Source of the DNA: a virus
Direction: 5' to 3' (one strand)
DNA: 62,841 nucleotides
IMG/VR virus record: IMGVR_UViG_3300033064_004529
Coordinates: 1 to 62,841 of that record
The notes beneath the pieces are model-generated. The model was not told where the DNA came from. It ran no database searches and worked only from the letters and a program-made list of their open reading frames with translations. The position numbers and the translations under genes are program-made. Positions 14,912 through 49,105 of the stretch are shown here, one piece after another. Position 1 is the stretch's first letter, and the number at the start of each line of letters is the position of its first letter.

Positions 14912-14912
14912 G

Positions 14913-18713: not shown

Positions 18714-18721
18714 ATAGACGT

Positions 18722-19540
18722 TTATTTTTCAAACACACTCCAAACCTTGTTATACATATTTTCACCAGATTCTAGTTTTTTTCGCCATACTAAAACCTCA
18801 TCTTTTGTTATTAACCCCGCAACATATTTGTTTAGTCTCCGCCTTATTGCTTGGTGTTGGGGGATGCTCCTATGAGGCAAACACGCATAACAAAACTGAC
18901 TTCTGCTTCTACCTGAGGTAATTGGTTTAAACGTTTTTTCACAAAACGCACAAGTTTTCTCTGCTAGGGTTTTTCCAACACCAAATGAAACTATGGGAGT
19001 TTGCCCTTTTCCCATTTTTAAATGCTCTAATGAATGACAATTGGGACATAACAAAATCAAGTTTTCTCTAGAATTATTGTTTCTATCCCCATCTTTATGA
19101 TGGGTTGTTAAAATTCGTGGTTCTTCTTTGAAACCGCATATTTCACAGAGGCCAATTTCCTCTCTTAAGCGCTTGGTTCTCCAAAAACGATGTTTCAACT
19201 TATGAGTTTCTTTAAGTTGTCTCCCACGAGACAAAATCCCCTTACATTTATTGGAACAACACTGTATTTTTCCTCCATCTTTTTGTCTTCTCCGTACCTC
19301 GGACTTTCCCACATGAAAATTTTCATTACAAATAGGACACTTAAAATAAACGCGTTTTTCATTAGCCTTAAGTTCGATTCCCTCCATATAGGTTCGTCTT
19401 TTAATTCCGTGTTTTTTCATATGATAGCGAATAGTGGCACCACTGCGAGAGTAAAGTTTACCGATATCCACTAGAGATTTTTTTTGATTGTGATATAACT
19501 CCACTAAATCTCCCTTTGTTGGTGGTTTTATTCGTTCCAT
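18722..19540 (-). CDS. HNH homing endonuclease with helix-turn-helix N-terminus, 272 aa
   Basis: Residues 1-45 look like a DNA-binding turn (LVELYHNQKKSLVDIGKLYSRSGATIRYHMKKHG). Two CPxC-type zinc pairs follow (CPIC, CSNKC), then an HNH core (CEICGFKE ... LTTHHKDGDRNNNSRENLILLCPNCHSLEH) and another CAFC...CYAC pair. AT-rich against its neighbours. Inserted between two glycan genes without breaking them. Confidence 0.88.
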   Translation of the reverse strand: MERIKPPTKGDLVELYHNQKKSLVDIGKLYSRSGATIRYHMKKHGIKRRTYMEGIELKANEKRVYFKCPICNENFHVGKSEVRRRQKDGGKIQCCSNKCKGILSRGRQLKETHKLKHRFWRTKRLREEIGLCEICGFKEEPRILTTHHKDGDRNNNSRENLILLCPNCHSLEHLKMGKGQTPIVSFGVGKTLAEKTCAFCEKTFKPITSGRSRSQFCYACLPHRSIPQHQAIRRRLNKYVAGLITKDEVLVWRKKLESGENMYNKVWSVFEK

Positions 19541-20745: not shown

Positions 20746-21812
20746 GACACGCGTCCCCCAAGTATTTCACTATACAAATTTATATATCGCTTTTTAATCT
20801 TTTCCCAACTATATTGCTCCGCCGTTTTTCTAGCCTCCCTCGCTACGTGCTTATAGTCGCTGAAGTTGTTCTTCAGATTATCCAGAATGCCGACCAAGGC
20901 ATCCACACCCCTCGGGGGGAAGGTGAACCCGTTCTTACCATCCTCTATCAGCATACTTGAACCTGTTCCTGTGCTGCCCACAACCACTCTGCCGTGCGCC
21001 ATTGCCTCGGGGAGAGTCATGCCATATCCCTCACTGACGCTGGGGTGTGCGTACACGGAGAACATGTGCATTATATCCTCTAACCTGTTGAATCCCCCAT
21101 ATAAGTGGTATTTGCCCCCTGTCGCCCACTTCTCTAGCACGGGTTTCATCTTCTCCACACCCTTCCCGAAGAAGTAAAGGACGGAGTCATCATAGTCCAA
21201 CTTGCTCCATGCATCGACAAGATACTTCACACCTTTGTCCGGTCCCCATGCCCCAATGTAGGCAATGTTGGTGAACTCCTCGGGATACGCCACTTCATCT
21301 GGTAGAGTGAGGCCGTGGGGAATAACTGTCACCCGCTTCGGTTTAATGTTCTTCTTTATCCACTCGGCGCTCCCATCTGACGGAGTTATCACCGAGTCAG
21401 CATCCTTCATGTGACCCCACAGCGCATCCCGTAGGTATGGGTCGGTGTTATGGATGAAGGGGTACGGTTTCCCAGTCATGTCCTCGTGCTCCCGTATGCT
21501 GTCCTCAAGGTTGTGGGCGGGACAGTTTACGACATAGTGTTCAGGTTGAAGGCGGTCAAGTATGGCGTTGGCGGGGGAACAACTTAGATGAGCCAAGTCA
21601 ACCCCCTTATGCTCCAGTAGACGCGCTGAGAAGTAGTCGAAAAGAAACGGGTTGAATGGGTAGTGGTGACTTATCCTAGCGGATGTCTCCTTCCTCGTGA
21701 TAACCTGCTTAACATCGGTAACACGGTGAAGCGCATCTATTTCGTTAATGCAAACACTTCCAGCCCCCGTATCAGCCGAGAGACGGTCAAACGTGACGTA
21801 AACCGAGTTCAT
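20742..21812 (-). CDS. Family 4 glycosyltransferase, 356 aa
   Basis: Start at 21812 is chosen because its ATGA overlaps the stop of the 39-residue gene upstream. GT-B features: NIAYIGAWGPDKGVKYLVDAW opens the donor domain and SEGYGMTLPEAMAHGRVVVGS carries the conserved Glu pair. Retaining transferase of the glycan cassette; overlaps the methyltransferase gene downstream by four bases. Confidence 0.9.
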   Translation of the reverse strand: MNSVYVTFDRLSADTGAGSVCINEIDALHRVTDVKQVITRKETSARISHHYPFNPFLFDYFSARLLEHKGVDLAHLSCSPANAILDRLQPEHYVVNCPAHNLEDSIREHEDMTGKPYPFIHNTDPYLRDALWGHMKDADSVITPSDGSAEWIKKNIKPKRVTVIPHGLTLPDEVAYPEEFTNIAYIGAWGPDKGVKYLVDAWSKLDYDDSVLYFFGKGVEKMKPVLEKWATGGKYHLYGGFNRLEDIMHMFSVYAHPSVSEGYGMTLPEAMAHGRVVVGSTGTGSSMLIEDGKNGFTFPPRGVDALVGILDNLKNNFSDYKHVAREARKTAEQYSWEKIKKRYINLYSEILGGRVS

Positions 21813-21928
21813 TCCTCGAAGAACCGCCTTAACTCCTCTGTCACAATAGCCCTCATCCAAGCAGGGATAAGGACGAGGAAAAGGAGGTTAATGCCCAGAG
21901 AAACGACAAGGAGAACCTCAAGAGTCAT
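21809..21928 (-). CDS. 39-aa single-span membrane protein
   Basis: Residues 3-24 are almost all hydrophobic (LEVLLVVSLGINLLFLVLIPAW), followed by a charged helix (RAIVTEELRRFFEE). Four-base overlaps with genes on both sides argue that it is translated. It may anchor a glycosyltransferase to the membrane; that is inference. Confidence 0.65.
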   Translation of the reverse strand: MTLEVLLVVSLGINLLFLVLIPAWMRAIVTEELRRFFEE

Positions 21929-22710
21929 ACCTTCGGAACCCTCAGTTGGAGACCCTTATTTCCTCCTGTCTCTAGAACTAGCAAACCAAAATGTGATAAT
22001 TTTACGTCGGTGAGACACCACGTTTTGAATCCCAGTTCACCAGCCTTCATCAACATGTCAAAGTCCTCACTTCTAGCCCCCGGATGCTCCCAGTGAAAGT
22101 ACGGTTTCTCATTGGTGCCGTATCCAGCGTCCCTCATAGCCTCAAACACCCGTCGGTGCATCAACATGAACCCCATTCCCGCAACTGAAACGGAAAACCA
22201 GTTCGCCTCAGGGGGTTGCCAGTGCTCAATATGCTGAAATGCTTCTCCGCCACCCGGCTTCTCCACGGCGTTCCATATTGCGTAGTGGAAACCATGTTTC
22301 TGCTTCGCCCTGTATAGCCCCGTTACGATGGATTCCCCGGAGTCTACGAGGGACTTATGCATTATCTGAAGCGCTAGGTTAGGGTCGCCTATCTCGATGT
22401 CCCCCATCTTCCCGACGGGGGTTTCAACTATCATGTCCTCGTCAATCCACAGACACCATTCATCTGTGCTCTCAAGAAACGTCTTCACGAGGACGTTGCG
22501 GGCGTTAGGGAGACTGGGGACGCGGCACATGGCGATATGCTTCTCGCACCAAGGAAGCTGAGCCACGCTGAGGGGTTTCCATGTTGCTTCAACGAACTCC
22601 GCAATCCATGTCCCCCTGTGTGGAAACAGGATGTGGATTCCCGGTTTACCCGTCGTTATTATCGGCTTTGTAACTATTTTATCCTCTGTAGAGGGTACAT
22701 TCCACGCCAT
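21925..22710 (-). CDS. GT-A-like glycosyltransferase, 261 aa
   Basis: N-terminal HILFPHRGTWIAEFVEATWKPL and the WCLWIDEDMIVET segment give a GT-A fold with a DxD-type site (DED near residue 94). VAGMGFMLMHRRVFEAM and PYFHWEHPGARSEDFDML resemble the acceptor region of GT2-like proteins. First gene of the glycan cassette after a TATA-like promoter. Confidence 0.75.
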   Translation of the reverse strand: MAWNVPSTEDKIVTKPIITTGKPGIHILFPHRGTWIAEFVEATWKPLSVAQLPWCEKHIAMCRVPSLPNARNVLVKTFLESTDEWCLWIDEDMIVETPVGKMGDIEIGDPNLALQIMHKSLVDSGESIVTGLYRAKQKHGFHYAIWNAVEKPGGGEAFQHIEHWQPPEANWFSVSVAGMGFMLMHRRVFEAMRDAGYGTNEKPYFHWEHPGARSEDFDMLMKAGELGFKTWCLTDVKLSHFGLLVLETGGNKGLQLRVPKV

Positions 22711-22731
22711 CCTATAGGAAGTAAGGGGAGT

Positions 22732-22741
22732 GGTATATAAC
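22732..22741 (-). promoter_or_regulatory. TATA box of the glycan cassette
   Basis: Minus-strand GGTTATATACC-like sequence ends about 22 bases before the ATG at 22710. The distance fits a short or absent leader. Confidence 0.5.
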
Positions 22742-22748
22742 CGTTACC

Positions 22749-23348
22749 CTAATCTATGCCGTCTGTGACACGACTTATCCAGCCCCATTGAATCTCGTCT
22801 GTCTGAGGCTCCCAGACGATCCATTCCGCCGAGCTTTTAACATACGCCATGTTATAAGCGTGTGCCTTGCCCTCCTCAAGGTTGTAGGAGTAGAGGAAAA
22901 CAACGCGGTATCCGAGGCTCATAGCATTATCCGCCGTGGTCAAGGCGAAGTCCATACAGTTAAACCTTTTTGAGTAGCCGAGTTCATCGGTTTTATCCGC
23001 CCTGATGAAAGCAAACAGTTCCTCCATAGTCTCGAAGTTCCGCACCCTATCCACGAGCTTCTCGACGACTATCACTTTTTCTACCTCGAACGGCTCGTAG
23101 ATGGAGATGGGCGCGGGAATCTCGATGAATGTGTAGTTTGTTCTTTCGATGATGACGGGAACCTCGACGACCTGAATCTCTGTCCTCGTGACTATCACGG
23201 GGACTTCTAGGGGAACGGTGACTTCGATTATGCGTTCCACCTCGATGGTTACTATCTCGGTTTGATACCAGAACTGGTGTCCTGCCACGGCTCCCGCCAA
23301 TAAGAGGGTTATTACGAGGGGGATGAACTCCTCTAACTCAAGCTCCAT
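22749..23348 (-). CDS. Membrane-anchored protein with transglutaminase-like cysteine domain, 199 aa
   Basis: Residues 8-24 form a signal anchor. Residues 30-95 are a repetitive Val/Ile/Glu/Pro beta region (IEVTVPLEVPVIV, VVEVPVIIERT), likely a stalk. The C-terminal domain shows a possible Cys-His-acid triad: C131 (FNCMDF), H163 (KAHAYNMAYV) and E180 (WEPQTDE), the order found in transglutaminase-like peptidases. It could cut or crosslink the host envelope; alternatively it is a binding domain. Confidence 0.6.
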   Translation of the reverse strand: MELELEEFIPLVITLLLAGAVAGHQFWYQTEIVTIEVERIIEVTVPLEVPVIVTRTEIQVVEVPVIIERTNYTFIEIPAPISIYEPFEVEKVIVVEKLVDRVRNFETMEELFAFIRADKTDELGYSKRFNCMDFALTTADNAMSLGYRVVFLYSYNLEEGKAHAYNMAYVKSSAEWIVWEPQTDEIQWGWISRVTDGID

Positions 23349-23371
23349 GACTGAATAGGGGGAACCTCAAT

Positions 23372-23379
23372 CTTATAAC
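23372..23379 (-). promoter_or_regulatory. TATA box before the 199-aa membrane protein
   Basis: Minus-strand GTTATAAG about 24-31 bases before the ATG at 23348, the spacing seen at other promoters in the window. Confidence 0.5.
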
Positions 23380-23460
23380 GTTTCGCAAAGGGGCCTCCGC
23401 TTCTCTCATGCCTTAACCCATAACAACAACTAATATAATAACCTTGTAGTTATCGACAAA

Positions 23461-23541
23461 ATGAAAACATACTATGTCTATAACTTCATACTTTTTCACA
23501 CGGTGTTGAGGGGCGTCCGTGCCCACAGTAATTTAGAGTGA
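23461..23541 (+). CDS. Possible plus-strand microgene in the late region, 26 aa
   Basis: In a 219-base gap on the minus strand there is a plus-strand ATG with CTAATATAATAA about 20-30 bases before it. It encodes a 26-residue hydrophobic-aromatic peptide starting MKTYYVYNFILFHTV. A full copy of the right-arm junction signal follows a few bases after the stop. It may be a relic of an early-gene cassette. Coding is uncertain. Confidence 0.3.
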   Translation: MKTYYVYNFILFHTVLRGVRAHSNLE

Positions 23542-23545
23542 GGTT

Positions 23546-23574
23546 CAGAGTTCAATCCAAACAGCGATTAAGCG
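23546..23574 (+). repeat. Orphan junction signal copy in the late region
   Basis: CAGAGTTC at 23546, then CCAAACAGCGATTAAG leading to GCGGATG. It lies on the strand opposite to the surrounding late genes and is followed by no plus-strand gene (the frame stops after three codons). Confidence 0.6.
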
Positions 23575-24284
23575 GATGCACCTATGATACCCGTGGCGGC
23601 TAAATCCGTTATCAGCGTCGCGACCACATCTGCCAATTCAGCGACGGCTACAGTGTTGGCGTCGAAGGCGCGATCCGCGATGTCGTTTGTGATGGTCCAC
23701 GCCGCGGAGCGAACTACGGGTACGATTCCATAGAAGCCAACGTTAGCACCATCATGATTCAGAGCACCATCAAGTTCTAACTCAAGATTCAGCCGGAGCC
23801 CCGTGTCCGCCACATGGGTCAGCGTAACGTCTTGGTCGAGCCCGAAGTAGACTATTCCGCCGTCGTCGAGGTAGAGGTTCTGCCACTCAAGAGCCGCTGA
23901 ACCTAAGTCCTGTCCACCTGCCCCAGAGGGCGTTATCGCTCCCGCAAATGTCGCCCCTGCGCCGAAGGTAGCTGCCGCTGTCCCCCCATCCATATTGAAC
24001 CCCGTGACCGTATCACATTTAATGATAAAATCAATATCTGTATTGTCATTATTGAAAATAATTTGGTTTGTCCCTACCTCATTTAACCTGACCATTTCAA
24101 TATTTCCAGCGGTAAAAACAATGGTATCCGTGGTGAAAACCATTTTTGTGTCGGGGTCTCCCGTACCCTGAATGGTGCCAATGTCAAGAAGCTGGCTGAA
24201 TACAATGTCACCATTAAATGATTTCGTCTTTCCACTAAGTGCCCACGCCTCCGCGCTCATCGGTGTAAAAACTATTCTAGCCAT
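23568..24284 (-). CDS. Putative fibre or decoration structural protein, 238 aa
   Basis: Gly/Thr/Asp-rich beta protein with repeated short strands (TTDTIVFTAGNIEMVRLNEVGTNQ) and a Q-DLGSAALEWQNLYLDDGGIVYFG segment common in phage fibre proteins. The start overlaps the upstream gene stop (TAATG). Probable virion surface protein. Confidence 0.6.
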   Translation of the reverse strand: MARIVFTPMSAEAWALSGKTKSFNGDIVFSQLLDIGTIQGTGDPDTKMVFTTDTIVFTAGNIEMVRLNEVGTNQIIFNNDNTDIDFIIKCDTVTGFNMDGGTAAATFGAGATFAGAITPSGAGGQDLGSAALEWQNLYLDDGGIVYFGLDQDVTLTHVADTGLRLNLELELDGALNHDGANVGFYGIVPVVRSAAWTITNDIADRAFDANTVAVAELADVVATLITDLAATGIIGASA

Positions 24285-24451
24285 TACTCTTCCTTCTCCT
24301 TGTCTCCCTCTTCTTCTCGCTGAAGCATATCCGCTAACCGTTGAAGCATCGTCGTATTATCTTGGTGTGCAATAACTGTGGCGTTAATCAGGTTCCCGAG
24401 ATTCTGGTTCCTCTGTGCCAACGCTTGAAGAAGCTGCTCCATTTCACTCAT
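24284..24451 (-). CDS. Small coiled-coil protein, 55 aa
   Basis: Begins MSEMEQLLQALAQRNQNLG and ends in a charged tail (EEEGDKEKEE). Predicted helical throughout, probably a coiled coil. Its stop overlaps the next start by one base. May be a chaperone or trimer organiser for the fibre protein downstream; inference. Confidence 0.6.
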   Translation of the reverse strand: MSEMEQLLQALAQRNQNLGNLINATVIAHQDNTTMLQRLADMLQREEEGDKEKEE

Positions 24452-24473
24452 CGCCTTTCATCCTCAACCACGA

Positions 24474-24977
24474 TTATACTGTCCCCATGTAGCTTACCAA
24501 GTCACCCGACAGCTCCGCGAAGTAGAACGTCGCACTCGGGTCGTCTATGTCCACCGTGACACCTACCCCCGGCTCCAGTAGGAACCCGTATCCGCTGTAG
24601 GGTCGGTAGCTGGTGAAACCCATGTAGATATCCCCGCTGTTGTTACTCGGGGTGTTTACGGCGAGGGATATGACTTCTCCGCTCGCTAGCGCAACCCCGC
24701 CAGATATTGCCCCGATGACTACCATGCCTGCGGTGAATCCATCTGTAGGCGTATAACCCGCTTCACCAGAGGTTTTAACTATCTGGGTTGAGGGTAAAGT
24801 GACTTCGCCGGACATAATGTGGGCTTCAACCCACTCGCCGGAGATATCGGCAAGGGCTATTCCCATCGTCCATAATCCTGACTGAACGACCACGCCGAGT
24901 CCAGATTCTACGGTGACTAGCCCCGAGGTTACAATTACTGGCTTTGGCACGTCAATATTTTCTGTTGCTAACGTCAT
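24474..24977 (-). CDS. Putative virion surface protein, 167 aa
   Basis: Ser/Gly/Val-rich beta protein with many SGE/SGL turns (VIVTSGLVTVESGLGVVVQSGL), fitting a decoration or fibre protein. It lies four bases after the 114-residue gene. No family recognised. Confidence 0.55.
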   Translation of the reverse strand: MTLATENIDVPKPVIVTSGLVTVESGLGVVVQSGLWTMGIALADISGEWVEAHIMSGEVTLPSTQIVKTSGEAGYTPTDGFTAGMVVIGAISGGVALASGEVISLAVNTPSNNSGDIYMGFTSYRPYSGYGFLLEPGVGVTVDIDDPSATFYFAELSGDLVSYMGTV

Positions 24978-24981
24978 ATCA

Positions 24982-25326
24982 TCACTTCCTCTTCCCCGTC
25001 ACGTACACTGTGGCAATCCCAGACCTATTATCCTGAAGGGCGGACAGTCCAACGTCCACTTGGTCATACGGGTTTGAAAACGCCAGATATTTGGAGCTTC
25101 CTGATGTGAGAACTGAGCCGGATGCTATCGAGAGAACCATTGGCAACCCCTCAACCGGATACGCTCTCACAGTGTACTCTACCCCGCTCCCTTCGTCCCC
25201 GACGGACCTGTTCTCAATGGTGATTCCCACCTTGGGAAAGTTTCTCGTGGTGTATTTAGCCGAGTAAACAAACGAGTTTGTAAGTTTCAACCCGGACACT
25301 AAAACATATGATTTTCCCAATGCCAT
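24982..25326 (-). CDS. Putative virion protein, 114 aa
   Basis: Beta-rich protein, pattern GLKLTNSFVYSAKYTTRNFPKVG then a second half with SGSVLTSGSSKYLAFSNP. ATG follows the upstream stop directly. Probably part of the capsid decoration set between capsid protein and glycan genes. Confidence 0.55.
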   Translation of the reverse strand: MALGKSYVLVSGLKLTNSFVYSAKYTTRNFPKVGITIENRSVGDEGSGVEYTVRAYPVEGLPMVLSIASGSVLTSGSSKYLAFSNPYDQVDVGLSALQDNRSGIATVYVTGKRK

Positions 25327-25557
25327 CTAATTTCCCACTCCTAACATTTCTCCTATTCTAAGTAATAAGGTTAAACCCGACATAGGGGCAAGCACCCATT
25401 TGATAATAGCCACAGCAGTATGAAGCTGAGTCTCCAGTCGCTCCTGCCGAAGCTCCATAGATGACGAATGGTCATTCAGAACCCTAATCGACTTACCCTG
25501 ATCCGTGATTCTGTCCCCCATCGCTTCAATCAGCCGATATATGCCTTCATCACTCAA
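25327..25557 (-). CDS. Holin-like small membrane protein, 76 aa
   Basis: N-terminal charged coiled coil (YRLIEAMGDRITDQGKSIRVL ... ELRQERLETQL) followed by one hydrophobic span (AVAIIKWVLAPMSGLTLLL). This is the layout of XhlA/haemolysin-type or holin-accessory proteins. Lysis role is inference from topology. Confidence 0.55.
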   Translation of the reverse strand: MSDEGIYRLIEAMGDRITDQGKSIRVLNDHSSSMELRQERLETQLHTAVAIIKWVLAPMSGLTLLLRIGEMLGVGN

Positions 25558-25591
25558 CGTTTAACCCTTTTCAACCATGATTATAGGGATT

Positions 25592-25617
25592 AAAAAAAAC
25601 GGCTCCCCACGAGCCCC
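25592..25617 (-). terminator. Hairpin plus T-run terminator
   Basis: On the minus strand GGCTC-N5-GAGCC is followed by G and eight Ts, just after the gene ending at 25647. This would end transcripts coming from the capsid genes. Confidence 0.65.
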
Positions 25618-25646
25618 AAGGAAACTAAATCTAAACTGTTGCAGAG

Positions 25647-25946
25647 TCATACTTTTCCCTTCGCTCTCCAGAAGACAGGACCCAACGAGCTAGTAAACTC
25701 GACGGTAAAGTGTCCACTTGTACTGTCCAAAGCAGGCCAAGATGTCGGATACGTACATTTCGGCTCAGCTACGCCACTCGTAGGAGAGGCACGGGTCTGA
25801 TCCCAAACCTCAAGAGTATCAACTATTCTCAGCCCAGTATTCAGCGTCCGAGTAATCACCTCAGCGCTAGTCATTGTGAAGCTTCCATAGTTTACCCTCC
25901 TGTTGCCTTCCACGCCTCTGTGGTCCAGGGTGTATGTGATCGTCAT
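25647..25946 (-). CDS. Putative capsid-associated protein, 99 aa
   Basis: Small beta protein (TITYTLDHRGVEGNRRVNYGSFTMTS ... VDTLEVWDQT) placed directly after the major capsid gene and before a terminator. Position suggests a decoration or head protein. No family recognised. Confidence 0.55.
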   Translation of the reverse strand: MTITYTLDHRGVEGNRRVNYGSFTMTSAEVITRTLNTGLRIVDTLEVWDQTRASPTSGVAEPKCTYPTSWPALDSTSGHFTVEFTSSLGPVFWRAKGKV

Positions 25947-25956
25947 TCTACGTCAC

Positions 25957-27108
25957 CTACTTGATGTCCCTAACTTTGCCTTGTGCAACGAAGTTTGTGC
26001 AGCGGAGTTCTCCGATGGTGTAGTAGTGCCCTTCCATGCCGTGACCATCAAGGTTGATGGTGTCCTCTGGGTATCTAGATTCGACGTAGACCGTCGGCAT
26101 CTTGATAGCCACACGGAGGAACCGCGAGTCGGCAAACATGATTGGCGCTACTTCCCCAGTTCTAGCAGTAGCTAGGCTGGAGTTGTAGTCTATACACGGT
26201 ATGATGGGCTGTCCGAAGAAAGTCGCAACGTTGAACCCAGCTTCAGTTCCAGGCCATACGCCGGTTGCCCCGTCTACGCGGGGAATCATCCATGCTGAGC
26301 CTAGTATTCCGGGTACGTTGTAGCGTCTCTCTGCTTCGAGGAGTGCGGACCATACCTTCAGTGTGTTGTGTCCTGTGAAGATTCTGTCTGTTTTTCCGCC
26401 TGCCTTAGCGATGTCAGCCCATACGCCGTCTATGAGACCTATGGTTAAGTCTCTTAGATCGGTTGTGGCGGTGCCTGAGTAGCTTACCTGAGCGTCGTAG
26501 GTTGTCGCGGCATCCCTGTCGATGCCGTAGATGTCTCCATCTCCGGCTGCCGATAGGGCGTTAGCCGTCTCAGCTGAGGAGCAGGCTACGCGGTCAAGGC
26601 TCTCCATGCCCACGCCTGCGGGCGTATCTACATCCTGAATAAGGTATGCGGATAGGCTTCTGATGTGCTCCTCAGCCTTCTGCCTGCGAAGCTCCGATAC
26701 TGGAATCACGTCGTCGTCTGAGTCGTTCAGGACGTAGGACTCCCAGTTCATACCGAAGCCGTGGTCGATGAGCTTAGGGCTGGCGCTTAGTGACGCCCAA
26801 GTGGGCGCTGTGCTGTCGGCGATGCTTGTGAAGGCGGCGGCTGAGCCTGCGCTTAGCCCACCACTCGGGAAGGCCCCACCTGCAGCGGTTTCAACCCTCC
26901 AGCCTGACTTGCCCCAAGGCTCTTTAGGTAGCCCTGCGAACACGTTGGCTTCGTAGTTGATCTGGCTCCAGACTTTGGCTCCGTACACTGTGTTCCTGTA
27001 GGCGGTGTCGCCTACTAGGACTGCGGCTTTAGCCTTCTGCACCATGTCGGCGTTTATGTCTCCGTAATAGAATTTCTCCATCTCTGCTATAGTTTTAAAA
27101 CTTTTCAT
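25957..27108 (-). CDS. Major capsid protein, HK97 fold, 383 aa
   Basis: Follows the protease-scaffold gene. It has the long N-terminal helical arm, the middle GLIDGVWADIAKAGGKTDRIFTG-HNT segment, and the final strand-rich domain with IIPCIDYNSS and PIMFADSRFLRVAIKMP, typical of HK97-type coat proteins. ATG start with GAAAAATAAAAA leader. Likely cleaved at the N-terminus by the neighbouring protease. Confidence 0.85.
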   Translation of the reverse strand: MKSFKTIAEMEKFYYGDINADMVQKAKAAVLVGDTAYRNTVYGAKVWSQINYEANVFAGLPKEPWGKSGWRVETAAGGAFPSGGLSAGSAAAFTSIADSTAPTWASLSASPKLIDHGFGMNWESYVLNDSDDDVIPVSELRRQKAEEHIRSLSAYLIQDVDTPAGVGMESLDRVACSSAETANALSAAGDGDIYGIDRDAATTYDAQVSYSGTATTDLRDLTIGLIDGVWADIAKAGGKTDRIFTGHNTLKVWSALLEAERRYNVPGILGSAWMIPRVDGATGVWPGTEAGFNVATFFGQPIIPCIDYNSSLATARTGEVAPIMFADSRFLRVAIKMPTVYVESRYPEDTINLDGHGMEGHYYTIGELRCTNFVAQGKVRDIK

Positions 27109-27129
27109 TTTTTATTTTCACCTCTTTCT

Positions 27130-28587
27130 CTATTCTACCATCTCATGGATTTCGTTCCAAGACATCCCGTAAAGCTGTGCTAGTGGAACCACTCCCTCTG
27201 GAGCTGCTGTTGTCTGTGTTGCTACTCCCCGTGTCTCTACGGGCGCCACAACTGGGGCTACGGGTGTAGCCACGGGTGCGGGCGCGGCGACTGGTTTAGG
27301 TGTCACTGGCGCTACTGGAGCCTCCGTTCTAGGTGCCTCCAGAGTAGCCTCAGTCGCAGCCGTCTCAACAGGCATATTAGCCTCTGGGACTGGCACTGCG
27401 TCCTGAACTATCTGCTGGATTTCCTCTTGTGTGGGCGCCTTCGCAGGCGCTGGCTCCACAGGTTCAGTGGGTGGCGTCTCAGCCGGAGGCGCAACCGCTT
27501 CAGGAGGTGTCTCCTCTGCGGGTGGCTCCTCGGCTTTCTCTAGATTATCCAGTCTGTCGGCGATTCGCGCCAAGTCGGCTGCCAGTGTCTCCATGGTGAG
27601 GGGTGCGATAGCCTCTTCAGGTTCCTTAGCGACCTCTTTAGGGGTCTCGGGTGTTTCAGGTTCGATATTTTCTCTTATCTCATTTCCTTTTTCTTTATTC
27701 AATGGGATATCCCCATTACTTTTTGGCGTATCCGACTCCTCTGTCGGGAGGGAAAGCGGGTTGACGCCACCGTGCGCCGCTTCTCCCGTTATGGTCCCAT
27801 GAGACCTTAACAATGCGTGGTCGAAGAGGGTTATGTACTCTGCTCCCTCTGCGGGTTCTCTTATGACTCGGGTGTCCTCCGTCTCGAAGGTCATTGGGTC
27901 CACCAAGTCAGATTCTATGATGACGTGGTATTTCCCACAGTTTTCTCCGCGTGTCTTACTTATCTTCACAACGCTCTGTGTGATGATTTTCTCTGTGAAC
28001 TTGTTTGCGACCTCTGCGAGTTTCGCTAGGTCGTCTCTTTTAAGCATATTAAACAAGGATGCCTTGTTTGCGGGTTGGTCTACGATTGACACTTCATACA
28101 ACTCTAACTGGTCTATATATCGGACGCATTTCCCGTTGGTGCATGTGGGGAGTTGAGGGTTGAGGTTGCGTCCGCCTATGCTGAATCCTCGGTATTCTCC
28201 CCGCTCTATTTTCTCCCACACCTCGTCGGATAGCGTTACGTCGTCTCTGACCTGTCCGACGATGTAGAGCCCCTTGTCATCTACTCCGCTGAGGTGGGTG
28301 TTTCCGTTGCTGTCTATGACTGGTTCAAATATGACTTTAGCCATCGGGAGGTTCTGGTGAAGTAGGTTGAGTAGGGCGTAATCGGGGTTTGCCCTCCAAT
28401 GCGTCCACGCGTTTTTAAGCGCTTCGTGGGTTACTACCTCTCCTTGGCTGTCCTCAATGCCCGATATGTTGGCGTATCCTGCTATGAATCGACTGTTCCC
28501 CTCATGATCTCTGAGGGCTAGTTTACGTATGAGCGCATCGGGATTTATTATACGCTCTATGGTTAAATCTACAGTCACAGGTATCAA
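27130..28587 (-). CDS. Prohead protease fused to scaffold, 485 aa
   Basis: TTG start at 28587 with AAGGAT before it. Residues 1-185 form an S78/XkdF-type prohead protease (FIAGYANISGIEDSQGEVVTH, then GEYRGFSIGG-R with the serine, and YEVSIVDQPANKAS). The remaining 300 residues are Pro/Ala/Glu-rich with coiled-coil potential (EETPPEAVAPPAETPP), as in fused scaffolds. The protease should remove the scaffold during head maturation. Confidence 0.85.
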   Translation of the reverse strand: MIPVTVDLTIERIINPDALIRKLALRDHEGNSRFIAGYANISGIEDSQGEVVTHEALKNAWTHWRANPDYALLNLLHQNLPMAKVIFEPVIDSNGNTHLSGVDDKGLYIVGQVRDDVTLSDEVWEKIERGEYRGFSIGGRNLNPQLPTCTNGKCVRYIDQLELYEVSIVDQPANKASLFNMLKRDDLAKLAEVANKFTEKIITQSVVKISKTRGENCGKYHVIIESDLVDPMTFETEDTRVIREPAEGAEYITLFDHALLRSHGTITGEAAHGGVNPLSLPTEESDTPKSNGDIPLNKEKGNEIRENIEPETPETPKEVAKEPEEAIAPLTMETLAADLARIADRLDNLEKAEEPPAEETPPEAVAPPAETPPTEPVEPAPAKAPTQEEIQQIVQDAVPVPEANMPVETAATEATLEAPRTEAPVAPVTPKPVAAPAPVATPVAPVVAPVETRGVATQTTAAPEGVVPLAQLYGMSWNEIHEMVE

Positions 28588-28606
28588 TATCCTTCAATAT
28601 GTTCTA

Positions 28607-28615
28607 CTTAAAAAG
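28607..28615 (-). promoter_or_regulatory. TATA-like box of the capsid genes
   Basis: Minus-strand CTTTTTAAG 20-28 bases before the TTG start of the protease gene. Matches the spacing at other promoters. Confidence 0.45.
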
Positions 28616-28643
28616 GGAACAGCGGGGTTTACCCTATGTTTGG

Positions 28644-28678
28644 GGTGTAAAGTTCCTCACTGTTTATACTGAACTCTG
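28644..28678 (-). repeat. Junction signal copy on the minus strand
   Basis: On the minus strand CAGAGTTC is followed by TATAAACAGTGAGGAAC, across the stop of the 98-codon zinc gene, whose product ends PQSSV. This is the only clear copy attached to a late-strand gene. Confidence 0.55.
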
Positions 28679-28957
28679 AGGTTTCCCCGTTCGGCACTCC
28701 TGACAGACGCGGTGGCGGGGCTCAGGGGTATCGTAGACCCGCTTACATACCTTACACGTCCAGTGGGGTAGTCCAGATGACTTTGCTTGAATTGCTATCT
28801 CCCGTCGCCAATCCAGTTTAGCCTCCTCATACGCTTTGTTGATAACCCCCGTTTCTCCTATCATGTCTTGGAATGAGAATGGTTTACCGCAGCGATGACA
28901 TGAGGTGTATGGTCCCTCCATGGGGTTTAACCCTGCTCCACAGTTAGGACAGGACAT
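28664..28957 (-). CDS. Zinc-ribbon protein, 97 aa
   Basis: The start at 28957 is chosen because it opens directly on MSCPNCGAGL; a longer frame would overlap the upstream gene by over 70 bases. Two zinc ribbons: CPNC...CHRC and CKVCKRV...CQEC. The C-terminus runs into a junction signal copy. It may be an acquired early-type gene placed in the late operon. Confidence 0.7.
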   Translation of the reverse strand: MSCPNCGAGLNPMEGPYTSCHRCGKPFSFQDMIGETGVINKAYEEAKLDWRREIAIQAKSSGLPHWTCKVCKRVYDTPEPRHRVCQECRTGKPQSSV

Positions 28958-29660
28958 CTGCTTGTTTCTTCCTCCATATGGACGCCTCAAGAATGTCCTC
29001 AAATGTTCCCATGTCAATCCATCGTCCCCCGTAGTAGCTGTAGGTTAACTTCATCTGTTTGAGAACGTCGGTAATCTCATATTCGCCTCGCTTGGATGGT
29101 GAAATGTTATTATAGAAGGAGAAGAACGTACTGTCGAGAAAGTATGCCCCCAATACTACGTTTCCTGATATTTCTTCTAGTGGTTTCTCTACTATGTCTA
29201 CAATACGGTGGTTATCTAGAACCGCAACGCCGTAGTTCTTAGCCTTACTCCAAGGCATCTTCTTGAGGACAATCATCGGTTCAAGTTTGTTCTTGAAGCA
29301 GTTTACCTGCATCTCCAACCCGTCGCAGAACAGGTTATCCCCGAGGAGAACCACGAATGGTTCATCTCTGACTCTGTCCCTGCACATGTAGATGGCGTAG
29401 GCGACGCCCTTGGGGGCGCCGTGGTAGTGATAGTCAATGTTTACGCCGAGTTCGCTGCCATCGCCAAGCAACTTGAAGAATCTCTCCGGGTCGTGGTCGC
29501 CCAGTGTGATGATGATGTCGGTTATCCCAGCGTCTCTAAGTGTCTCTATGGCGCCGAATATCATGGGTTTATCGTAGATTAAAACCGCGTGTTTGTTGAT
29601 TATCTTAGTGGTTGGGCGAAGTCTTGTAGAGTGTCCCCCACAGAGAATTATACCGCGCAT
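28944..29660 (-). CDS. RmlA-like sugar-1-phosphate nucleotidyltransferase, 238 aa
   Basis: Signature GGHSTRLRPTTKIINKHAV with IYDKPMI at 29-35, VVLLGDNLFCDG carrying the metal-binding Asp, and ALFVEKP-type VDIVEKPLEEI. Makes an NDP-sugar from sugar-1-phosphate and NTP in the cytosol. Pairs with the epimerase and aminotransferase of the glycan cassette. Confidence 0.9.
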   Translation of the reverse strand: MRGIILCGGHSTRLRPTTKIINKHAVLIYDKPMIFGAIETLRDAGITDIIITLGDHDPERFFKLLGDGSELGVNIDYHYHGAPKGVAYAIYMCRDRVRDEPFVVLLGDNLFCDGLEMQVNCFKNKLEPMIVLKKMPWSKAKNYGVAVLDNHRIVDIVEKPLEEISGNVVLGAYFLDSTFFSFYNNISPSKRGEYEITDVLKQMKLTYSYYGGRWIDMGTFEDILEASIWRKKQADVLS

Positions 29661-29661
29661 T

Positions 29662-30711
29662 TTATATCCAGTTTAAATCCAATGATTTTATTATATAAGC
29701 ATCATGAATTGCTTGATTATAGGAGAGGAATTTGCACTTGGAGAAACAGTTTTTATTCGGGCGACCCTCCATAAGATTCTTATGTCGCTCGCTGAACCAT
29801 ATCTCCCTGAACGAGCCATCCTCAGGAATCGTCCCGATGAGTCCTCCGTCCACCCCCCTCTGCTCACAGCATATCCACACCCCACCAGACGGAGTTATCT
29901 GCGGATTTAAATACGGCGCATAGCACCTGTCAAACCCCCACTCACTCTTAGGTTTAGTCTTCCCTAAGGTAGCGTACACCTTAAAGTCCTCAGTCTCACA
30001 CTGTTTCGCCCTTGAGATTAAACTCTGAACTTCGTCGCCTTTCTCGGCTATCCAGTTGAACCAGTTGAATCCTACTTTGTCTCTAACCTCGTCGTAGTCG
30101 GTGAAGCAGGGGCGTACGTGGGCGAAGTCGCACCCTAGGCTCTTAGCGAGTTCGGCGAAGGCAGGTATCTCCTTGTAGTTGTCTGGGTGAATGAGGAACC
30201 CTACGCCAATACGTGTATGCCGGGATGCCTCCTGAATGTTGCAGAGAATCTTCGTGAAGTCGCCGGTTCCATGGAGTTTCCTATGTGTCTCCGCGGTGGC
30301 TGCGTCTAAGCTGACTCTGATGGTTTTAGACGCCTTAGCATCCTCAGCAGTGAGGTTTGAACCGTTTGTGATGAGAAGGAGGTCGCCCGACTCACTGAGT
30401 ATCTGGAGAAACTCATGTGCCTTCGGGTGGATGAGCGGTTCTCCACCGCCGCAGACTTCCCAGCCTCGTACCCCTAGCATATAGGCGTCTAGGACGATGT
30501 TGCGGAACACCTCCTCATCGAGGAATCCCCCCTCGGTAGCTCTGTGTGAGGTCCAACTACACCAAGCGCATTTATGGTTACATGGGTTGGCGAAGTCGAA
30601 ACTTACCATTGCGGGAGTTGGGATTATTCCGTCATTGATGAGGCGGAGTATGCTCGCGCCATAATGCAAAATTTTCAGGGGGTTAAAGGGAGATAGAAGC
30701 TCTGAACTCAT
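29662..30711 (-). CDS. Radical SAM protein with SPASM-like C-terminus, 349 aa
   Basis: Iron-sulphur motif C44-x3-C48-x2-C51 (CNHKCAWC) after MVSFDFANP, the GGGEPLIH motif at 92-99, and a C-terminal cysteine set (CYAPY ... WICCEQRG ... CFSKCKF) that may hold an auxiliary cluster. Lies between a nucleotidyltransferase and a GT. Could modify a sugar or a peptide; substrate unknown. Confidence 0.85.
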   Translation of the reverse strand: MSSELLSPFNPLKILHYGASILRLINDGIIPTPAMVSFDFANPCNHKCAWCSWTSHRATEGGFLDEEVFRNIVLDAYMLGVRGWEVCGGGEPLIHPKAHEFLQILSESGDLLLITNGSNLTAEDAKASKTIRVSLDAATAETHRKLHGTGDFTKILCNIQEASRHTRIGVGFLIHPDNYKEIPAFAELAKSLGCDFAHVRPCFTDYDEVRDKVGFNWFNWIAEKGDEVQSLISRAKQCETEDFKVYATLGKTKPKSEWGFDRCYAPYLNPQITPSGGVWICCEQRGVDGGLIGTIPEDGSFREIWFSERHKNLMEGRPNKNCFSKCKFLSYNQAIHDAYIIKSLDLNWI

Positions 30712-30738
30712 ATTATAGTAGTTTCACGGTGAGGTATT

Positions 30739-31701
30739 TTAACCTTTGGGAGTCCTCGCCTCTATTTTGTCGATGTCCACAAACCCTTTTACGGCGTCGC
30801 TCATATTCTCATCCCGCTCAGGGTTCACGTAGACTCCCTCATCAGACATTTTTCTACGCCGTTTAAGCATCTCCCCCGTCTTCTTAACCTCTATGTCAAG
30901 CATCGCCCTGTGACGTATATCGAACCCCCAGTGAGGCACAATCAACCCGAAGTCAGCGATGAATCTGAAGCCCTTCTCGCGGGCTTTAAGGCAGAAAAGT
31001 GTGTCATCCGTAAGAGTCGTTCCATAGGGAACAAAGAACCTCTGCTTATCCAATAGTTCCCGCTTCGCCAAGAAGCATCCGAAGGATACGGCGTCCATCC
31101 ACAGGCGTCTGCTGAATATCTCCAGTGGAAACGCCCCCCGCATACCTCTGAGTGTTAGCCCCCGCATCGTCCCCTCATGCAGGAAGAACGCCGTGAAGGT
31201 CGCCATCAACTTCTTTGTTTCCTCGTCAACCTGAGAGAAGAAGTATATGCCCGCCGCCCCATCCGCCCCCAATCTGATGCCGTCGTATAGACGCCTGATG
31301 CTTACAGGAGGATTAAAGTTGTCATGGTCGTTGAAGAACACCATATCCGGCTTACTCCACTTCACCAACAGGTTACGGCACTGAGTAACGTTACGGACAT
31401 GGGGAAGCTCTCCGCCTTTAACCTGCTTCACACGTTTAACCTTAATCTTACGGTAGGAATCCCCATGGGTTCCACGGAACTCCTTCATAACATTATAGGT
31501 AGCGTCATCCCCCTGAACAGTAAAGTATAGGCTGACCAAGTCACGGGGCCAATCATACAGTAGGACGTGGTTGAGGTACTTCTCTAGGAAGGGGGTTGAG
31601 TTGTAGAGGGGGCAGCACACCGCTACTGGGAAGGGGTCAAACTCGGGTAGTTCACGTTCTTCAACATAGAGTTTCCGGAGGTATTCGAGGGTGGCAACCA
31701 T
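30739..31701 (-). CDS. GT-A-like glycosyltransferase, 320 aa
   Basis: PFPVAVCCPLYNSTPFLEKYLNHV opens a GT2-like domain; MVFFNDHDNFNPP at about 120-132 holds the DxD-type acids. Late region has TTLTDDTLFCLKAREKGF. Structure resembles GT2 family members but substrate is not recognisable. Preceded by a TATA-like box. Confidence 0.75.
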   Translation of the reverse strand: MVATLEYLRKLYVEERELPEFDPFPVAVCCPLYNSTPFLEKYLNHVLLYDWPRDLVSLYFTVQGDDATYNVMKEFRGTHGDSYRKIKVKRVKQVKGGELPHVRNVTQCRNLLVKWSKPDMVFFNDHDNFNPPVSIRRLYDGIRLGADGAAGIYFFSQVDEETKKLMATFTAFFLHEGTMRGLTLRGMRGAFPLEIFSRRLWMDAVSFGCFLAKRELLDKQRFFVPYGTTLTDDTLFCLKAREKGFRFIADFGLIVPHWGFDIRHRAMLDIEVKKTGEMLKRRRKMSDEGVYVNPERDENMSDAVKGFVDIDKIEARTPKG

Positions 31702-46576: not shown

Positions 46577-46647
46577 TTGACCCGCCCGCGGTATAAGAGT
46601 TTTTGGGGGTTTTCCCCTTCATCTTGGGTCAATTTACCGCGGGCGGG
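46577..46647. other. Nested GC-rich inverted repeats upstream of the guide array
   Basis: Perfect 13-base arms CCCGCCCGCGGTA (46581-46593) and TACCGCGGGCGGG (46635-46647). An alternative pair TTGACCC (46577-46583)/GGGTCAA (46626-46632) encloses a small GGGGTTTTCCCC hairpin. The two folds exclude each other. Could end transcription of the small genes, isolate the array, or act in replication. There is no gene in 46562-46720. Confidence 0.65.
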
Positions 46648-46652
46648 CAATA

Positions 46653-46661
46653 CTTAAATAG
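46653..46661 (+). promoter_or_regulatory. TATA box of the guide array
   Basis: CTTAAATAG, about 60 bases before the first repeat. With archaeal spacing, transcription would begin near 46685, giving a leader of about 35 bases before the array. Confidence 0.55.
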
Positions 46662-46720
46662 AAGCAAACGGTTCTTTTCTCTGTGTCTTCTCTAATGGAA
46701 TACAATAGCCATAGTGTACC

Positions 46721-47074
46721 TGAAACCCACTCTAAAGGTGCGAGCCAAAGGCATAATGAACTCCATTCACGTATTGCGAGCCACCTCGATGATGAAGCCC
46801 ATGGGGAAGATGCGAGCCATATCACAAGTGAAACCCATTGAATTACTGCGAGTCAGCCAGAAATGAAATGAAGACCATTCTAACGTTGCGAGCCAAGAAT
46901 AAAGTGAAACCCATGTTTTGTATGCAAGTCATAACAACAGTGAAGCCCAAGTGTGTATTACGAGCCAACACCCCCATGAAACCCAAGATTAGGGTGCGAG
47001 CCATTAGTAAAGTGAAGCCCATGCTAATATGCGAGCCAAGTCAGCGATGAAACCCACGATAATGATGCGATGTT
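46721..47074 (+). repeat. TIGR-type dual-repeat guide array, ten units
   Basis: Two alternating 9-base repeats, TGAAACCCA and TGCGAGCCA (both fit TGMRASCCA), are separated by variable 9-base spacers, so each unit is 36 bases. Unit starts: 46721, 46757, 46793, 46829, 46869, 46905, 46941, 46977, 47013, 47048. Minor repeat variants occur (TGAAGCCCA, TGAACTCCA, TGCAAGTCA, TACGAGCCA). One spacer is 13 bases (46856-46868), one 8. The last loop repeat is degenerate (TGCGATGTT). This is the layout reported for TIGR arrays that yield 36-nt tigRNAs. Confidence 0.9.
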
Positions 47075-47076
47075 CG

Positions 47077-47090
47077 CCCCTTTTTTTTAG
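47077..47090 (+). terminator. T-run terminator after the array
   Basis: GCCCC followed by eight Ts directly after the last unit; U-rich ends are the usual archaeal stop signal. Confidence 0.55.
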
Positions 47091-47141: not shown

Positions 47142-48026
47142 ATGTTAAAAATCAAAACTCGTTACGATAGTACCCCGTGGATTCAATCCACCAAAGAAGC
47201 CGTGAAGCTCCTCACCACAGGAGACTGGCACGCACTCGACAAATGGGGCATATGCCCCCCCGCCTTCTCAACCAAAGAAGGCACACCCCTGCACCCAAGC
47301 AAAGTCCAGAAGAAAATCTACCGTGAAACCGTTAAACTCTGCAAGAAAATAGGGCATGTAGACGTAGCCATCCTCATGGGAGACATGGCGGAAGGAAAAC
47401 AGTCGAAGGCGTTCGGAGTACCCCTCATGGACGCGGACACCGACAACCAGGTTGAAGCTGCTTTCCAGTTCTACGAGGCGACCGTCCATGAACACTGCAC
47501 CCCGGATATTGTACTTGCCATCATGGGGACGCCCTACCACCGGTCCGTCGGAATAGGCGGAGACCTTGATTATCAGGTGGCGTCTAAAATCGCCCAGTTG
47601 GATAATGTCATTTTTGGACAACCGAACTTGAGCTTCCTACTCGGGAAGGATAAGGTCAGGTGGAACCTTCAGCACCGAGTCAGTATAGCCCGAGTCAACC
47701 GCATGATGCCCCTAGAGAAAACCTACCGCTTCTACAACAATCTGGAGCTTATGAGCTGGACTGGAAACCCTAAGCGTGTGCCGGACATGGTGGTTCGGGC
47801 GCACAGACACGACCCGCAAGTACCCTTCCCATTGGGGCAAGGGCGCAGGTGGGCTATGGTGACTCCCCCCCTCAAGGTGGTGGACGAGTACGCGTCTGTG
47901 ATGGCGTATCCTGTGGGTCCAACCAGCGCGGGATTGATGACCGTGAAACAGTATGGATTGGGTGACTTTGCAGGTAAATACTATCCCATCAAGGTCGAAA
48001 CTGATTCAGTGGAGGTGATAGGGTGA
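47142..48026 (+). CDS. Calcineurin-like metallophosphoesterase, 294 aa
   Basis: All family motifs are present: GDWH at 27-30, GD at 80-81 (ILMGDMAEG), GTPYH at 129-133 in place of GNHD, H178 and H221-x-H223 (RAHRHDP). This fold covers protein phosphatases, 2',3'-cyclic nucleotide enzymes and Mre11-type nucleases. It has its own promoter and overlaps the Tas-like gene by four bases (GTGA), between two guide arrays. A nuclease partner for the nuclease-less Tas is possible but unproven. Confidence 0.85.
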   Translation: MLKIKTRYDSTPWIQSTKEAVKLLTTGDWHALDKWGICPPAFSTKEGTPLHPSKVQKKIYRETVKLCKKIGHVDVAILMGDMAEGKQSKAFGVPLMDADTDNQVEAAFQFYEATVHEHCTPDIVLAIMGTPYHRSVGIGGDLDYQVASKIAQLDNVIFGQPNLSFLLGKDKVRWNLQHRVSIARVNRMMPLEKTYRFYNNLELMSWTGNPKRVPDMVVRAHRHDPQVPFPLGQGRRWAMVTPPLKVVDEYASVMAYPVGPTSAGLMTVKQYGLGDFAGKYYPIKVETDSVEVIG

Positions 48027-49045
48027 CGCCTAAAGCCATTCCCGGCGTGAAACCCAAGCCCACCGTGCGAGAAGAGAAGGTGGACCTTGTTACCTTCACT
48101 GAATCCGACACAGTGGAAGATGCTGTCCGTCGTCATAAGCGGGCTGAACGCAAAGTCCTCAGAGAAGCCCTTGGAATAACCCTTGGAGAACTCATGATAG
48201 GCGCAGACTTTGAGACCCTTACACGTGACTTGTGGACCGTAGACGATACAAAGAACCGGATAGGACATCAAGTCAGAGCCACCGTGCAGAACAGACTACT
48301 CCGGCGCTCTCCCTACTGGGGTGAAATCAAGGCACTGAGAAAGAGTAAGGAATCGGATCGTAAGGAGATAGCTAAACTCATCAAGAAGGCGTCCAAGGAG
48401 CTAGGTTATGAGGAGAATGAGATCACAAAGCAACGGGACTTGGCGTTGGCACAGCACACCACCTATCAACTTATGGATATTATGAAGAATGAAATAGCCA
48501 AGGCACTCACAGGGGAACTAATCAAGATGCCCTTATGGAACGGTTACCTTCAACACGTTGTCGGTATCAGCACCCTCACCGCCTCCAAGCTCATCTATCT
48601 CGTGAAGGATGTAACCCGATTCAGCCAGCCCTCTAAACTGTTAAAGTATTCGGGACTAGCCGTGACAGACGGGAAGCCCGACCGCCCGAAGCGAGGCGTG
48701 GAACTGAACTACAACCCCGAACTCAAAGCCCTTCTACTCGGAGTCATCGGAGACAACTTCATCAAGTCGAAAAGCCAGTACCGAGTAATCTACGACAGAC
48801 GCAAGGCGTACACCGCCCAGCACCGCCCCGAGTGGGGAATCAACCCGAAGACGAAGAAGGAGAACTATAAGGCACACTACCACGCCGACGCCCGCAGAAT
48901 AATGGTGAAGCGCTTCGTCACCGAGTTCTGGAAGGCGGGATACCTCGCCGCGGGGTTGGAGGTGCCGACTCAGCCATATGCCGTGAGGATTCTTGGGCAT
49001 GATTTGGAGGAGGACGTTGTAAGTTATGTGCCACAAGATGAATGA
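48023..49045 (+). CDS. Tas-like RNA-guided protein with Nop/IS110-type domain, no nuclease, 340 aa
   Basis: GTG start with an ideal GGAGGTGA site at 48011-48018. Residues 105-165 form a basic coiled coil. Residues 168-310 match the IS110 C-terminal/Nop-like domain (PLWNGYLQHVVGISTLTASKLIYL, FSQPSKLLKYSGLA, RGVELNYNPELKALLLGVI, a Tyr/Arg helix and a final helix). The N-terminal DEDD RuvC domain of IS110 is absent, the catalytic SG is replaced by DG (217), and no HNH or RuvC motif is seen. With the flanking 36-base arrays this best fits a Nop-only Tas protein. Acts presumably as a tigRNA-bound DNA-binding complex. Confidence 0.8.
   Translation: MTPKAIPGVKPKPTVREEKVDLVTFTESDTVEDAVRRHKRAERKVLREALGITLGELMIGADFETLTRDLWTVDDTKNRIGHQVRATVQNRLLRRSPYWGEIKALRKSKESDRKEIAKLIKKASKELGYEENEITKQRDLALAQHTTYQLMDIMKNEIAKALTGELIKMPLWNGYLQHVVGISTLTASKLIYLVKDVTRFSQPSKLLKYSGLAVTDGKPDRPKRGVELNYNPELKALLLGVIGDNFIKSKSQYRVIYDRRKAYTAQHRPEWGINPKTKKENYKAHYHADARRIMVKRFVTEFWKAGYLAAGLEVPTQPYAVRILGHDLEEDVVSYVPQDE
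48048..48074 (+). repeat. Guide-array unit inside the tas coding start
   Basis: TGAAACCCA (48048-48056), a nine-base gap, then TGCGAGAAG (48066-48074) whose first six bases match the second repeat. It encodes the early residues VKPKPTVRE of the Tas-like protein. Exact 9-base spacing makes chance unlikely. Confidence 0.65.
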
Positions 49046-49105
49046 AACCCAAAAATGTTCTGCGAGCCAAGTGGGTAGTGAAAACCATCGTGAAATTGCG
49101 GGTCT
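49043..49105 (+). repeat. Second, short guide array (two units)
   Basis: TGAAACCCA at 49043 contains the stop codon of the tas gene. Then come spacer, TGCGAGCCA (49061), spacer, TGAAAACCA (49079), spacer and a decayed TGCGGGTCT (49097). Every repeat and spacer is nine bases, in phase with the 36-base period. Confidence 0.85.

What the first reader, a model, noticed from the sequence alone, without database searches (positions are those of the whole stretch)
46721..47074. A 36-base dual-repeat guide array of the TIGR type in an archaeal virus
Ten units alternate TGAAACCCA and TGCGAGCCA with variable 9-base spacers. Nothing else in the window has this strict 9-9-9-9 pattern. The layout, the 36-base period and the adjacent Nop/IS110-domain gene match the TIGR-Tas systems described in 2025 (tandem interspaced guide RNAs, 36-nt tigRNAs, two spacers per guide). 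Those were reported mainly from phages and parasitic bacteria; RadA and TATA promoters here point to an archaeal virus. The repeat sequences themselves may be new.
Basis: partly seen in the sequence, partly recalled or inferred. Interest (0 to 1): 0.97.

Follow-up and report, generated by a model that had tools for sequence, protein, structure and literature searches.

The report
Archaeal virus TIGR guide array, nuclease-less Tas
A tailed virus of archaea carries a genuine TIGR-Tas locus, a recently described RNA-guided DNA-targeting system; its repeats and its viral setting are already known, but its Tas protein lacks a nuclease domain and is translationally coupled to an Mre11-like phosphoesterase gene, which might be new.

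Summary
The array is real: ten edge repeats (TGAAACCCA-like) alternate with ten loop repeats (TGCGAGCCA-like), mostly with 9-nt spacers; one spacer is 13 nt, one 8 nt, and the last loop repeat is truncated before a T8 run. A second mini-array starts in the stop codon of the Tas gene. The 340-aa Tas passes NCBIfam's TIGR_Tas model (7e-36), and its predicted fold matches TasR and TasH structures. A blind DNA search with the repeat pair found 56 viral stretches; 39 hold a tas gene, each within 90 nt of an array. So this is a TIGR-Tas system. It is not a first: archaeal viruses are in the founding paper, and the repeats are not new (same loop repeat in a Microcystis phage and many contigs). By type it is TasA: the N-terminal 87 residues are helical, with no RuvC or HNH. 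The unusual part is the gene between array and tas, a calcineurin-like phosphoesterase with Mre11 as best fold match and a 4-nt overlap with tas. One other tas locus, in another Tas clade, has the same neighbour; nearly all other loci of that phosphoesterase family lack tas, so a functional link is only suggestive. No spacer target was found above chance. Host: an archaeon, not identified further.

The parts
46653..46660 (+). Archaeal TATA-box-like element (CTTAAATA), putative array promoter
   Evidence: sequence inspection; inference
46703..47074 (+). Main TIGR array: degenerate loop repeat at 46703, nine complete units and a truncated tenth (edge TGAAACCCA/TGAAGCCCA, loop TGCGAGCCA, spacers 9 nt, one 13, one 8)
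47081..47088 (+). T8 run after the truncated last repeat; putative archaeal poly-T terminator
   Evidence: sequence; inference
47142..48026 (+). 294-aa calcineurin-like metallophosphoesterase, Mre11-like fold; metal-ligand motifs D28xH30, GD81, GTPYH133, H178, H221xH223
   Evidence: family HMM built without it scores it 2.1e-17; relatives hit Pfam Metallophos; conserved ligands; Foldseek 4nzv MRE11 E 8.8e-6, prob 1.00
48023..49045 (+). tas gene, 340 aa, TasA type (no RuvC or HNH), GTG start with strong Shine-Dalgarno GGAGGTGAT, overlaps the phosphoesterase stop by 4 nt
   Evidence: NCBIfam NF052498 7.3e-36, 124.2 bits vs cut-off 100; phmmer 9mty 3.6e-18; Foldseek 9mty 1.3e-9; start context
48030..48071 (+). 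Array remnant inside the 5' coding region of tas: degenerate loop (CTAAAGCCA) - 9 nt - exact edge repeat TGAAACCCA at 48048 - 9 nt - partial loop TGCGAG at 48066
49043..49105 (+). Second mini-array, starting in the tas stop codon: edge-9-loop-9-edge(TGAAAACCA)-9-degenerate loop(TGCGGGTCT)

Best explanation
A TIGR-Tas system of the TasA type, carried by a tailed archaeal virus. Shown: a dual-repeat array with box D (UG) and box C (CCA) at the ends of both repeats, an adjacent Tas protein whose Nop/IS110-like C-terminal domain and long coiled coil fold like TasR and TasH, and no nuclease domain on the Tas. Inferred from the characterised relatives: the array is transcribed, cut within edge repeats into about 36-nt tigRNAs, and bound by a Tas dimer in a figure of eight; the two 9-nt spacers pair with opposite strands of one roughly 18-bp DNA site, opening and bending it. 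With no RuvC or HNH domain, the Tas itself should bind and block rather than cut. What the virus uses it for (silencing rival elements or host genes, or directing a second enzyme such as the co-transcribed phosphoesterase) is not resolved.
For: Array geometry and chance test. Tas identity: NCBIfam TIGR_Tas_endo above cut-off, PDB TasR by sequence, AlphaFold model pTM 0.69 with mostly pLDDT >90 in residues 160-310, Foldseek top 11 hits are all TasR or TasH, followed by IS621/ISCro4 recombinases. Independent test: a repeat-pair DNA search without any protein information returned 56 viral stretches; 39 contain a tas gene in the held DNA, all with an array within 90 nt on the same strand. The same repeat class with tas occurs in cellular contigs, including a Thermoplasmatota MAG with about 40 units, an Aenigmatarchaeota MAG, Smithella and a Planctomycetota MAG. 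The nearest Tas relative (L063, 39% identity) has an array with edge TGATAACTA and loop TGCGAGCTA: box C changed to CTA in both repeats together, as expected if both are read by one symmetric dimer (rule in PMC12045711). TasR-type relatives L056 and L013 show RuvC-like N-termini (AVDWS..), which the window protein lacks; its N-terminus is predicted all-helical.
Against: No small-RNA data, so processing and length are assumed. Two spacers depart from 9 nt and some loop repeats have lost part of a box, so not every unit may be functional. No target for any guide exceeded chance in 1.5 Mb of held viral and cellular DNA.
Confidence: 0.88

Rival explanations
1. The unit is a two-gene effector: the nuclease-less Tas finds the DNA site and the Mre11-like phosphoesterase, made from the same transcript with coupled translation, cuts or trims the DNA that Tas opens or bends.
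For: The phosphoesterase gene lies between array and tas, overlaps the tas start by 4 nt (GTGA) with a strong Shine-Dalgarno inside its 3' end; its metal ligands are intact; Mre11 is the best fold match. A second TasA locus, L032, whose Tas falls in a different, well-supported clade, also has a phosphoesterase of this family directly upstream.
Against: Only 2 of about 67 tas loci with a readable upstream gene have it; upstream genes are otherwise diverse. Nearly all other loci holding this phosphoesterase family have no tas in the held DNA, so it is mainly a general phage gene. In L032 a small ORF separates the two genes. Leaving out the index case, one further co-occurrence is not clearly beyond chance.
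Confidence: 0.2
2. The phosphoesterase is an ordinary viral DNA-metabolism gene that happens to share an operon with tas; the TIGR system works alone as an RNA-guided DNA binder.
For: The phosphoesterase family is found in at least 69 viral loci, almost all without tas, and in a Methanomicrobiales virus without tas.
Against: Translational coupling of the two genes and the second independent adjacency in L032.
Confidence: 0.7
3. The region is a degenerate protein-coding repeat, not a guide array.
For: A 70-codon ORF (46838-47050) crosses the array, and part of a unit is translated in tas.
Against: The spacers are unrelated to each other while the repeats are conserved; spacer-length changes (13 and 8 nt) break a single reading frame; unrelated viruses keep the same repeats next to tas.
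Confidence: 0.01
4. An IS110-family insertion sequence with its bridge RNA.
For: Pfam Transposase_20 hit.
Against: No DEDD transposase domain at the N-terminus; TasR fits better than IS621 by more than five orders of magnitude in E-value; many-unit array instead of one bridge RNA.
Confidence: 0.01

Closest known systems
TIGR-TasA systems (Faure et al. 2025, PMC12045711), e.g. FpTasA
   Same: Dual 9-nt repeats, 9-nt spacers, Nop-domain Tas without nuclease, arrays upstream and downstream of tas
   Different: An 87-residue helical N-terminal extension; a phosphoesterase gene between the main array and tas; part of an array unit translated as the tas N-terminus
TaTasR of a Thermoproteota archaeon (PDB 9MTY)
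   Same: C-terminal Nop domain (27% identity in the Foldseek alignment), UG...CCA repeats, archaeal setting
   Different: TaTasR has an active RuvC domain; the window protein has none
Microcystis phage Mvi-JY20 TIGR locus (PP438412)
   Same: Same loop repeat TGCGAGCCA, edge ACGAAACCC(A), Tas 31% identical over 153 residues
   Different: Cyanobacterial host, short TasA without the N-terminal extension, array seen downstream of tas
Acidianus tailed spindle virus (ATSV) array
   Same: Archaeal virus with a dual-repeat array right after tas
   Different: Unrelated virus type (Bicaudaviridae), different repeats, Tas only 27% identical over about 158 columns
TasA-TasParB operons (PMC12045711)
   Same: TasA encoded in an operon with a second protein, arrays around the pair
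   Different: Partner here is a metallophosphoesterase, not ParB
Mre11/SbcD nucleases
   Same: Predicted fold and metal ligands of the neighbouring gene product
   Different: Very low sequence identity (12-14% in the structural alignment); no Rad50 partner was looked for

Membership tests
TIGR-Tas (dual-repeat) | Two distinct alternating 8-12-nt repeats separated by ~9-nt spacers | tested here: met
   one 13-nt and one 8-nt spacer
TIGR-Tas (dual-repeat) | Repeats begin with UG (box D) and end with CCA (box C), covarying between edge and loop | tested here: met
   UG and CCA invariant in 10/10 edge repeats, kept in most loop repeats; the nearest relative has CTA in both repeats
TIGR-Tas (dual-repeat) | Adjacent gene for a Nop-domain Tas protein | tested here: met
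   39 of 56 repeat-matched viral loci hold tas next to an array
[quoted passage not shown]
   ends in a truncated loop repeat TGCGA, then T8; the truncated repeat is a loop, not an edge, and no hairpin was tested (poly-T suits archaea)
TIGR-Tas (dual-repeat) | Processing into 36-nt tigRNAs bound by Tas | not testable with these tools
   needs RNA sequencing
TIGR-Tas (dual-repeat) | Tandem-spacer DNA targeting | tested here: inconclusive
   no target above shuffled pairs in 1.5 Mb
TasR | N-terminal RuvC domain | tested here: not met
   helical N-terminus without strands, no RuvC motif, unlike L056/L013
TasH | N-terminal HNH domain | tested here: not met
   Pfam finds only Transposase_20; model
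TasA | Nop domain without nuclease domain | tested here: met
CRISPR | 25-36-nt single repeats with similar-sized spacers, Cas genes | tested here: not met
   repeats are 9 nt in two kinds; no Cas-like protein among those inspected
IS110 transposon | N-terminal DEDD transposase domain | tested here: not met
Box C/D guide RNA | Rfam C/D RNA match | tested here: not met
   no Rfam family in the window at gathering score
Mre11-like metallophosphoesterase (neighbour gene) | Metal-ligand motifs and fold | tested here: met
   model confidence moderate (mean pLDDT 62.6, pTM 0.71)
Mre11-like metallophosphoesterase (neighbour gene) | Nuclease activity | not testable with these tools
   biochemistry needed

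The most novel reading that the evidence does not exclude
A split RNA-guided nuclease: a nuclease-less TasA, guided by tigRNAs, works with a co-translated Mre11-like phosphoesterase supplied in trans, an effector arrangement not described in the founding TIGR paper (where RuvC or HNH is fused to Tas, or ParB is the partner).
Probability: 0.18. Interest if true: 0.8.

Novelty: new member of a known kind. Interest (0 to 1): 0.45.

Why it matters
What nuclease-less TasA systems do is an open question in the founding paper. This locus gives a concrete, testable hypothesis (a nuclease encoded in the same operon). The comparison also shows that one repeat class (GAARCCCA / TGCGAGCCA) runs through viruses and MAGs of both bacteria and archaea, which gives a simple DNA probe for finding more TIGR loci.

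Tried and rejected
Single-protein searches of IMG/VR with Tas and with the phosphoesterase found no close relatives; plasmids gave none. A rescan of IMG/VR with the window's own phosphoesterase first gave only members of the general family. Target search: 583 unique guides against 1.5 Mb, both geometries, gaps 0-2, up to 2 mismatches: 363 matches, shuffled pairings 275-351; matches within the guide's own locus 5 versus 2-3; no signal. The terminase gave only weak, mixed hits. Survey of cellular archaea: Tas over the cut-off in 3 of 390 genomes sampled from the phylum of the Thermoplasmatota MAG and 2 of 156 from that of the Aenigmatarchaeota MAG, none with the phosphoesterase in the held flanks; the many weaker hits look like IS110 transposases (inference). 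The ATSV paper is not held. Considered and dropped: coding repeat, CRISPR, IS110 element, box C/D sRNA.

Full report
Observation. Ten edge repeats (consensus TGAAACCCA, variant TGAAGCCCA) alternate with ten loop repeats (TGCGAGCCA). Spacers are 9 nt except one of 13 and one of 8. UG and CCA are kept in every edge repeat. Spacers share no sequence with each other beyond mild A+T bias. Six pairs within one mismatch per repeat occur in the window, none in 30 simulated sequences, and period 36 has the strongest self-similarity of periods 20-60. Two things were missed: a mini-array whose first edge repeat begins in the tas stop codon (49043), and an edge repeat with half-matching loops on either side inside the first codons of tas (48030-48071).

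The Tas protein. ORF 48023-49045 starts with GTG preceded by GGAGGTGAT, and its start overlaps the stop of the gene before it. NCBIfam NF052498 (TIGR-Tas) scores 124.2 bits against a cut-off of 100. TasR 9MTY is found by sequence at 3.6e-18. The AlphaFold model (37 related sequences, pTM 0.69) matches TasR and TasH cryo-EM structures first and IS621/ISCro4 next. Residues 1-87 are predicted as helices and coil at low to moderate confidence, without the strands a RuvC domain needs; in relatives L056 and L013 the corresponding part reads like RuvC. The protein is therefore TasA-like. Its place in the Tas tree is uncertain (long branch; nearest L063, 39% identical).

Independent support. The DNA pattern GAARCCCA-N9-TGCGAGCCA, searched with no protein information, returned 56 stretches in IMG/VR. 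A Tas HMM then found a tas gene in 39 of them, with an array 1-89 nt away on the same strand; in the others tas may lie outside the held DNA. In genome contigs the same pattern found arrays next to tas in a Thermoplasmatota MAG, an Aenigmatarchaeota MAG, Smithella, a Planctomycetota MAG and others. Microcystis phage Mvi-JY20 has the same loop repeat. The repeats are thus a widespread class and not new. The nearest Tas relative has CTA instead of CCA in both repeats, in line with the covariation reported in PMC12045711.

The virus. Terminase, portal and head protein make it a tailed virus. The capsid protein matches only archaeal viruses (haloarchaeal HCTV/HVTV and a Methanofastidiosa virus), RadA only haloarchaeal ones. 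The host itself is unknown; identities are about 24-31%. Archaeal viruses are named among TIGR carriers in the founding paper, which cites ATSV.

The neighbour. The 294-aa gene between array and tas had no significant Pfam or PHROG hit. A related ORF lies upstream of tas in L032. A family of 69 viral loci was collected from the pair. An HMM of that family, built without the window's protein, scores it 2.1e-17 (single-target E-value); several members hit Pfam Metallophos. D28, H30, D81, H133, H178, H221 and H223 align with the family's conserved ligands. The AlphaFold model is of moderate quality (pTM 0.71); the three significant fold matches are all MRE11. The pairing with tas occurs in two loci whose Tas proteins fall in different parts of the tree, so it probably arose twice; but most members of the family have no tas nearby and most tas genes have other neighbours. 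I treat a joint function as possible, not shown.

Mechanism. From the characterised systems (PMC12045711): array transcript, cutting in edge repeats, 36-nt tigRNA on a Tas dimer, two spacers pairing with opposite DNA strands, strong bending. TasA has no nuclease, so binding without cutting is the default expectation. A TATA-like element before the array, a T8 run after it, and a TATA-like CTTATATG about 30 nt before the phosphoesterase ATG suggest two transcripts: the array, and phosphoesterase-tas-mini-array (inference from sequence).

Targets. No guide of this or about 70 other array-bearing loci had a dual-strand site above chance in 1.5 Mb. This does not exclude targets elsewhere.

Verdict. 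A sound TIGR-TasA locus in an archaeal tailed virus; a new member of a known kind. The phosphoesterase neighbour is the one feature that could raise it to a new variant.

Noticed in passing
46581-46647: Perfect 13-nt inverted repeat CCCGCCCGCGGTA / TACCGCGGGCGGG, 41 nt apart, just upstream of the putative array promoter; possible operator or regulatory hairpin.
   Followed up: partly
48030-48071: TIGR repeats are translated as the first residues of Tas (..GVKPKPTVRE..); L043 shows the same (VKPRIKVRAK). Could be array overrun by the ORF or a Tas-binding site in its own mRNA.
   Followed up: partly
L010, L030, L043, L047 (IMGVR_UViG_3300036863_000086, 72 kb): One viral contig with about 56 TIGR units in several dispersed arrays, some irregularly spaced.
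   Followed up: no
L187 (Thermoplasmatota MAG JAUXAU010000005.1): About 40 TIGR units of the same repeat class around a tas gene in an archaeal MAG contig.
   Followed up: partly
L162:300-1994: Phosphoesterase of the same family interrupted by an intein-like insertion just before the GTPYH motif.
   Followed up: no
12190-31701, - strand: Large block of putative sugar-nucleotide, glycosyltransferase, methyltransferase and radical-SAM-like genes among the structural genes (reading of ORFs).
   Followed up: no
4424-5425, 10747-11520, 18722-19540, - strand: Putative homing-endonuclease-like ORFs among the structural genes (reading of ORFs).
   Followed up: no
L036:391-1053: PD-(D/E)XK nuclease gene 160 nt upstream of a tas gene; another candidate for a nuclease supplied in trans.
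   Followed up: no
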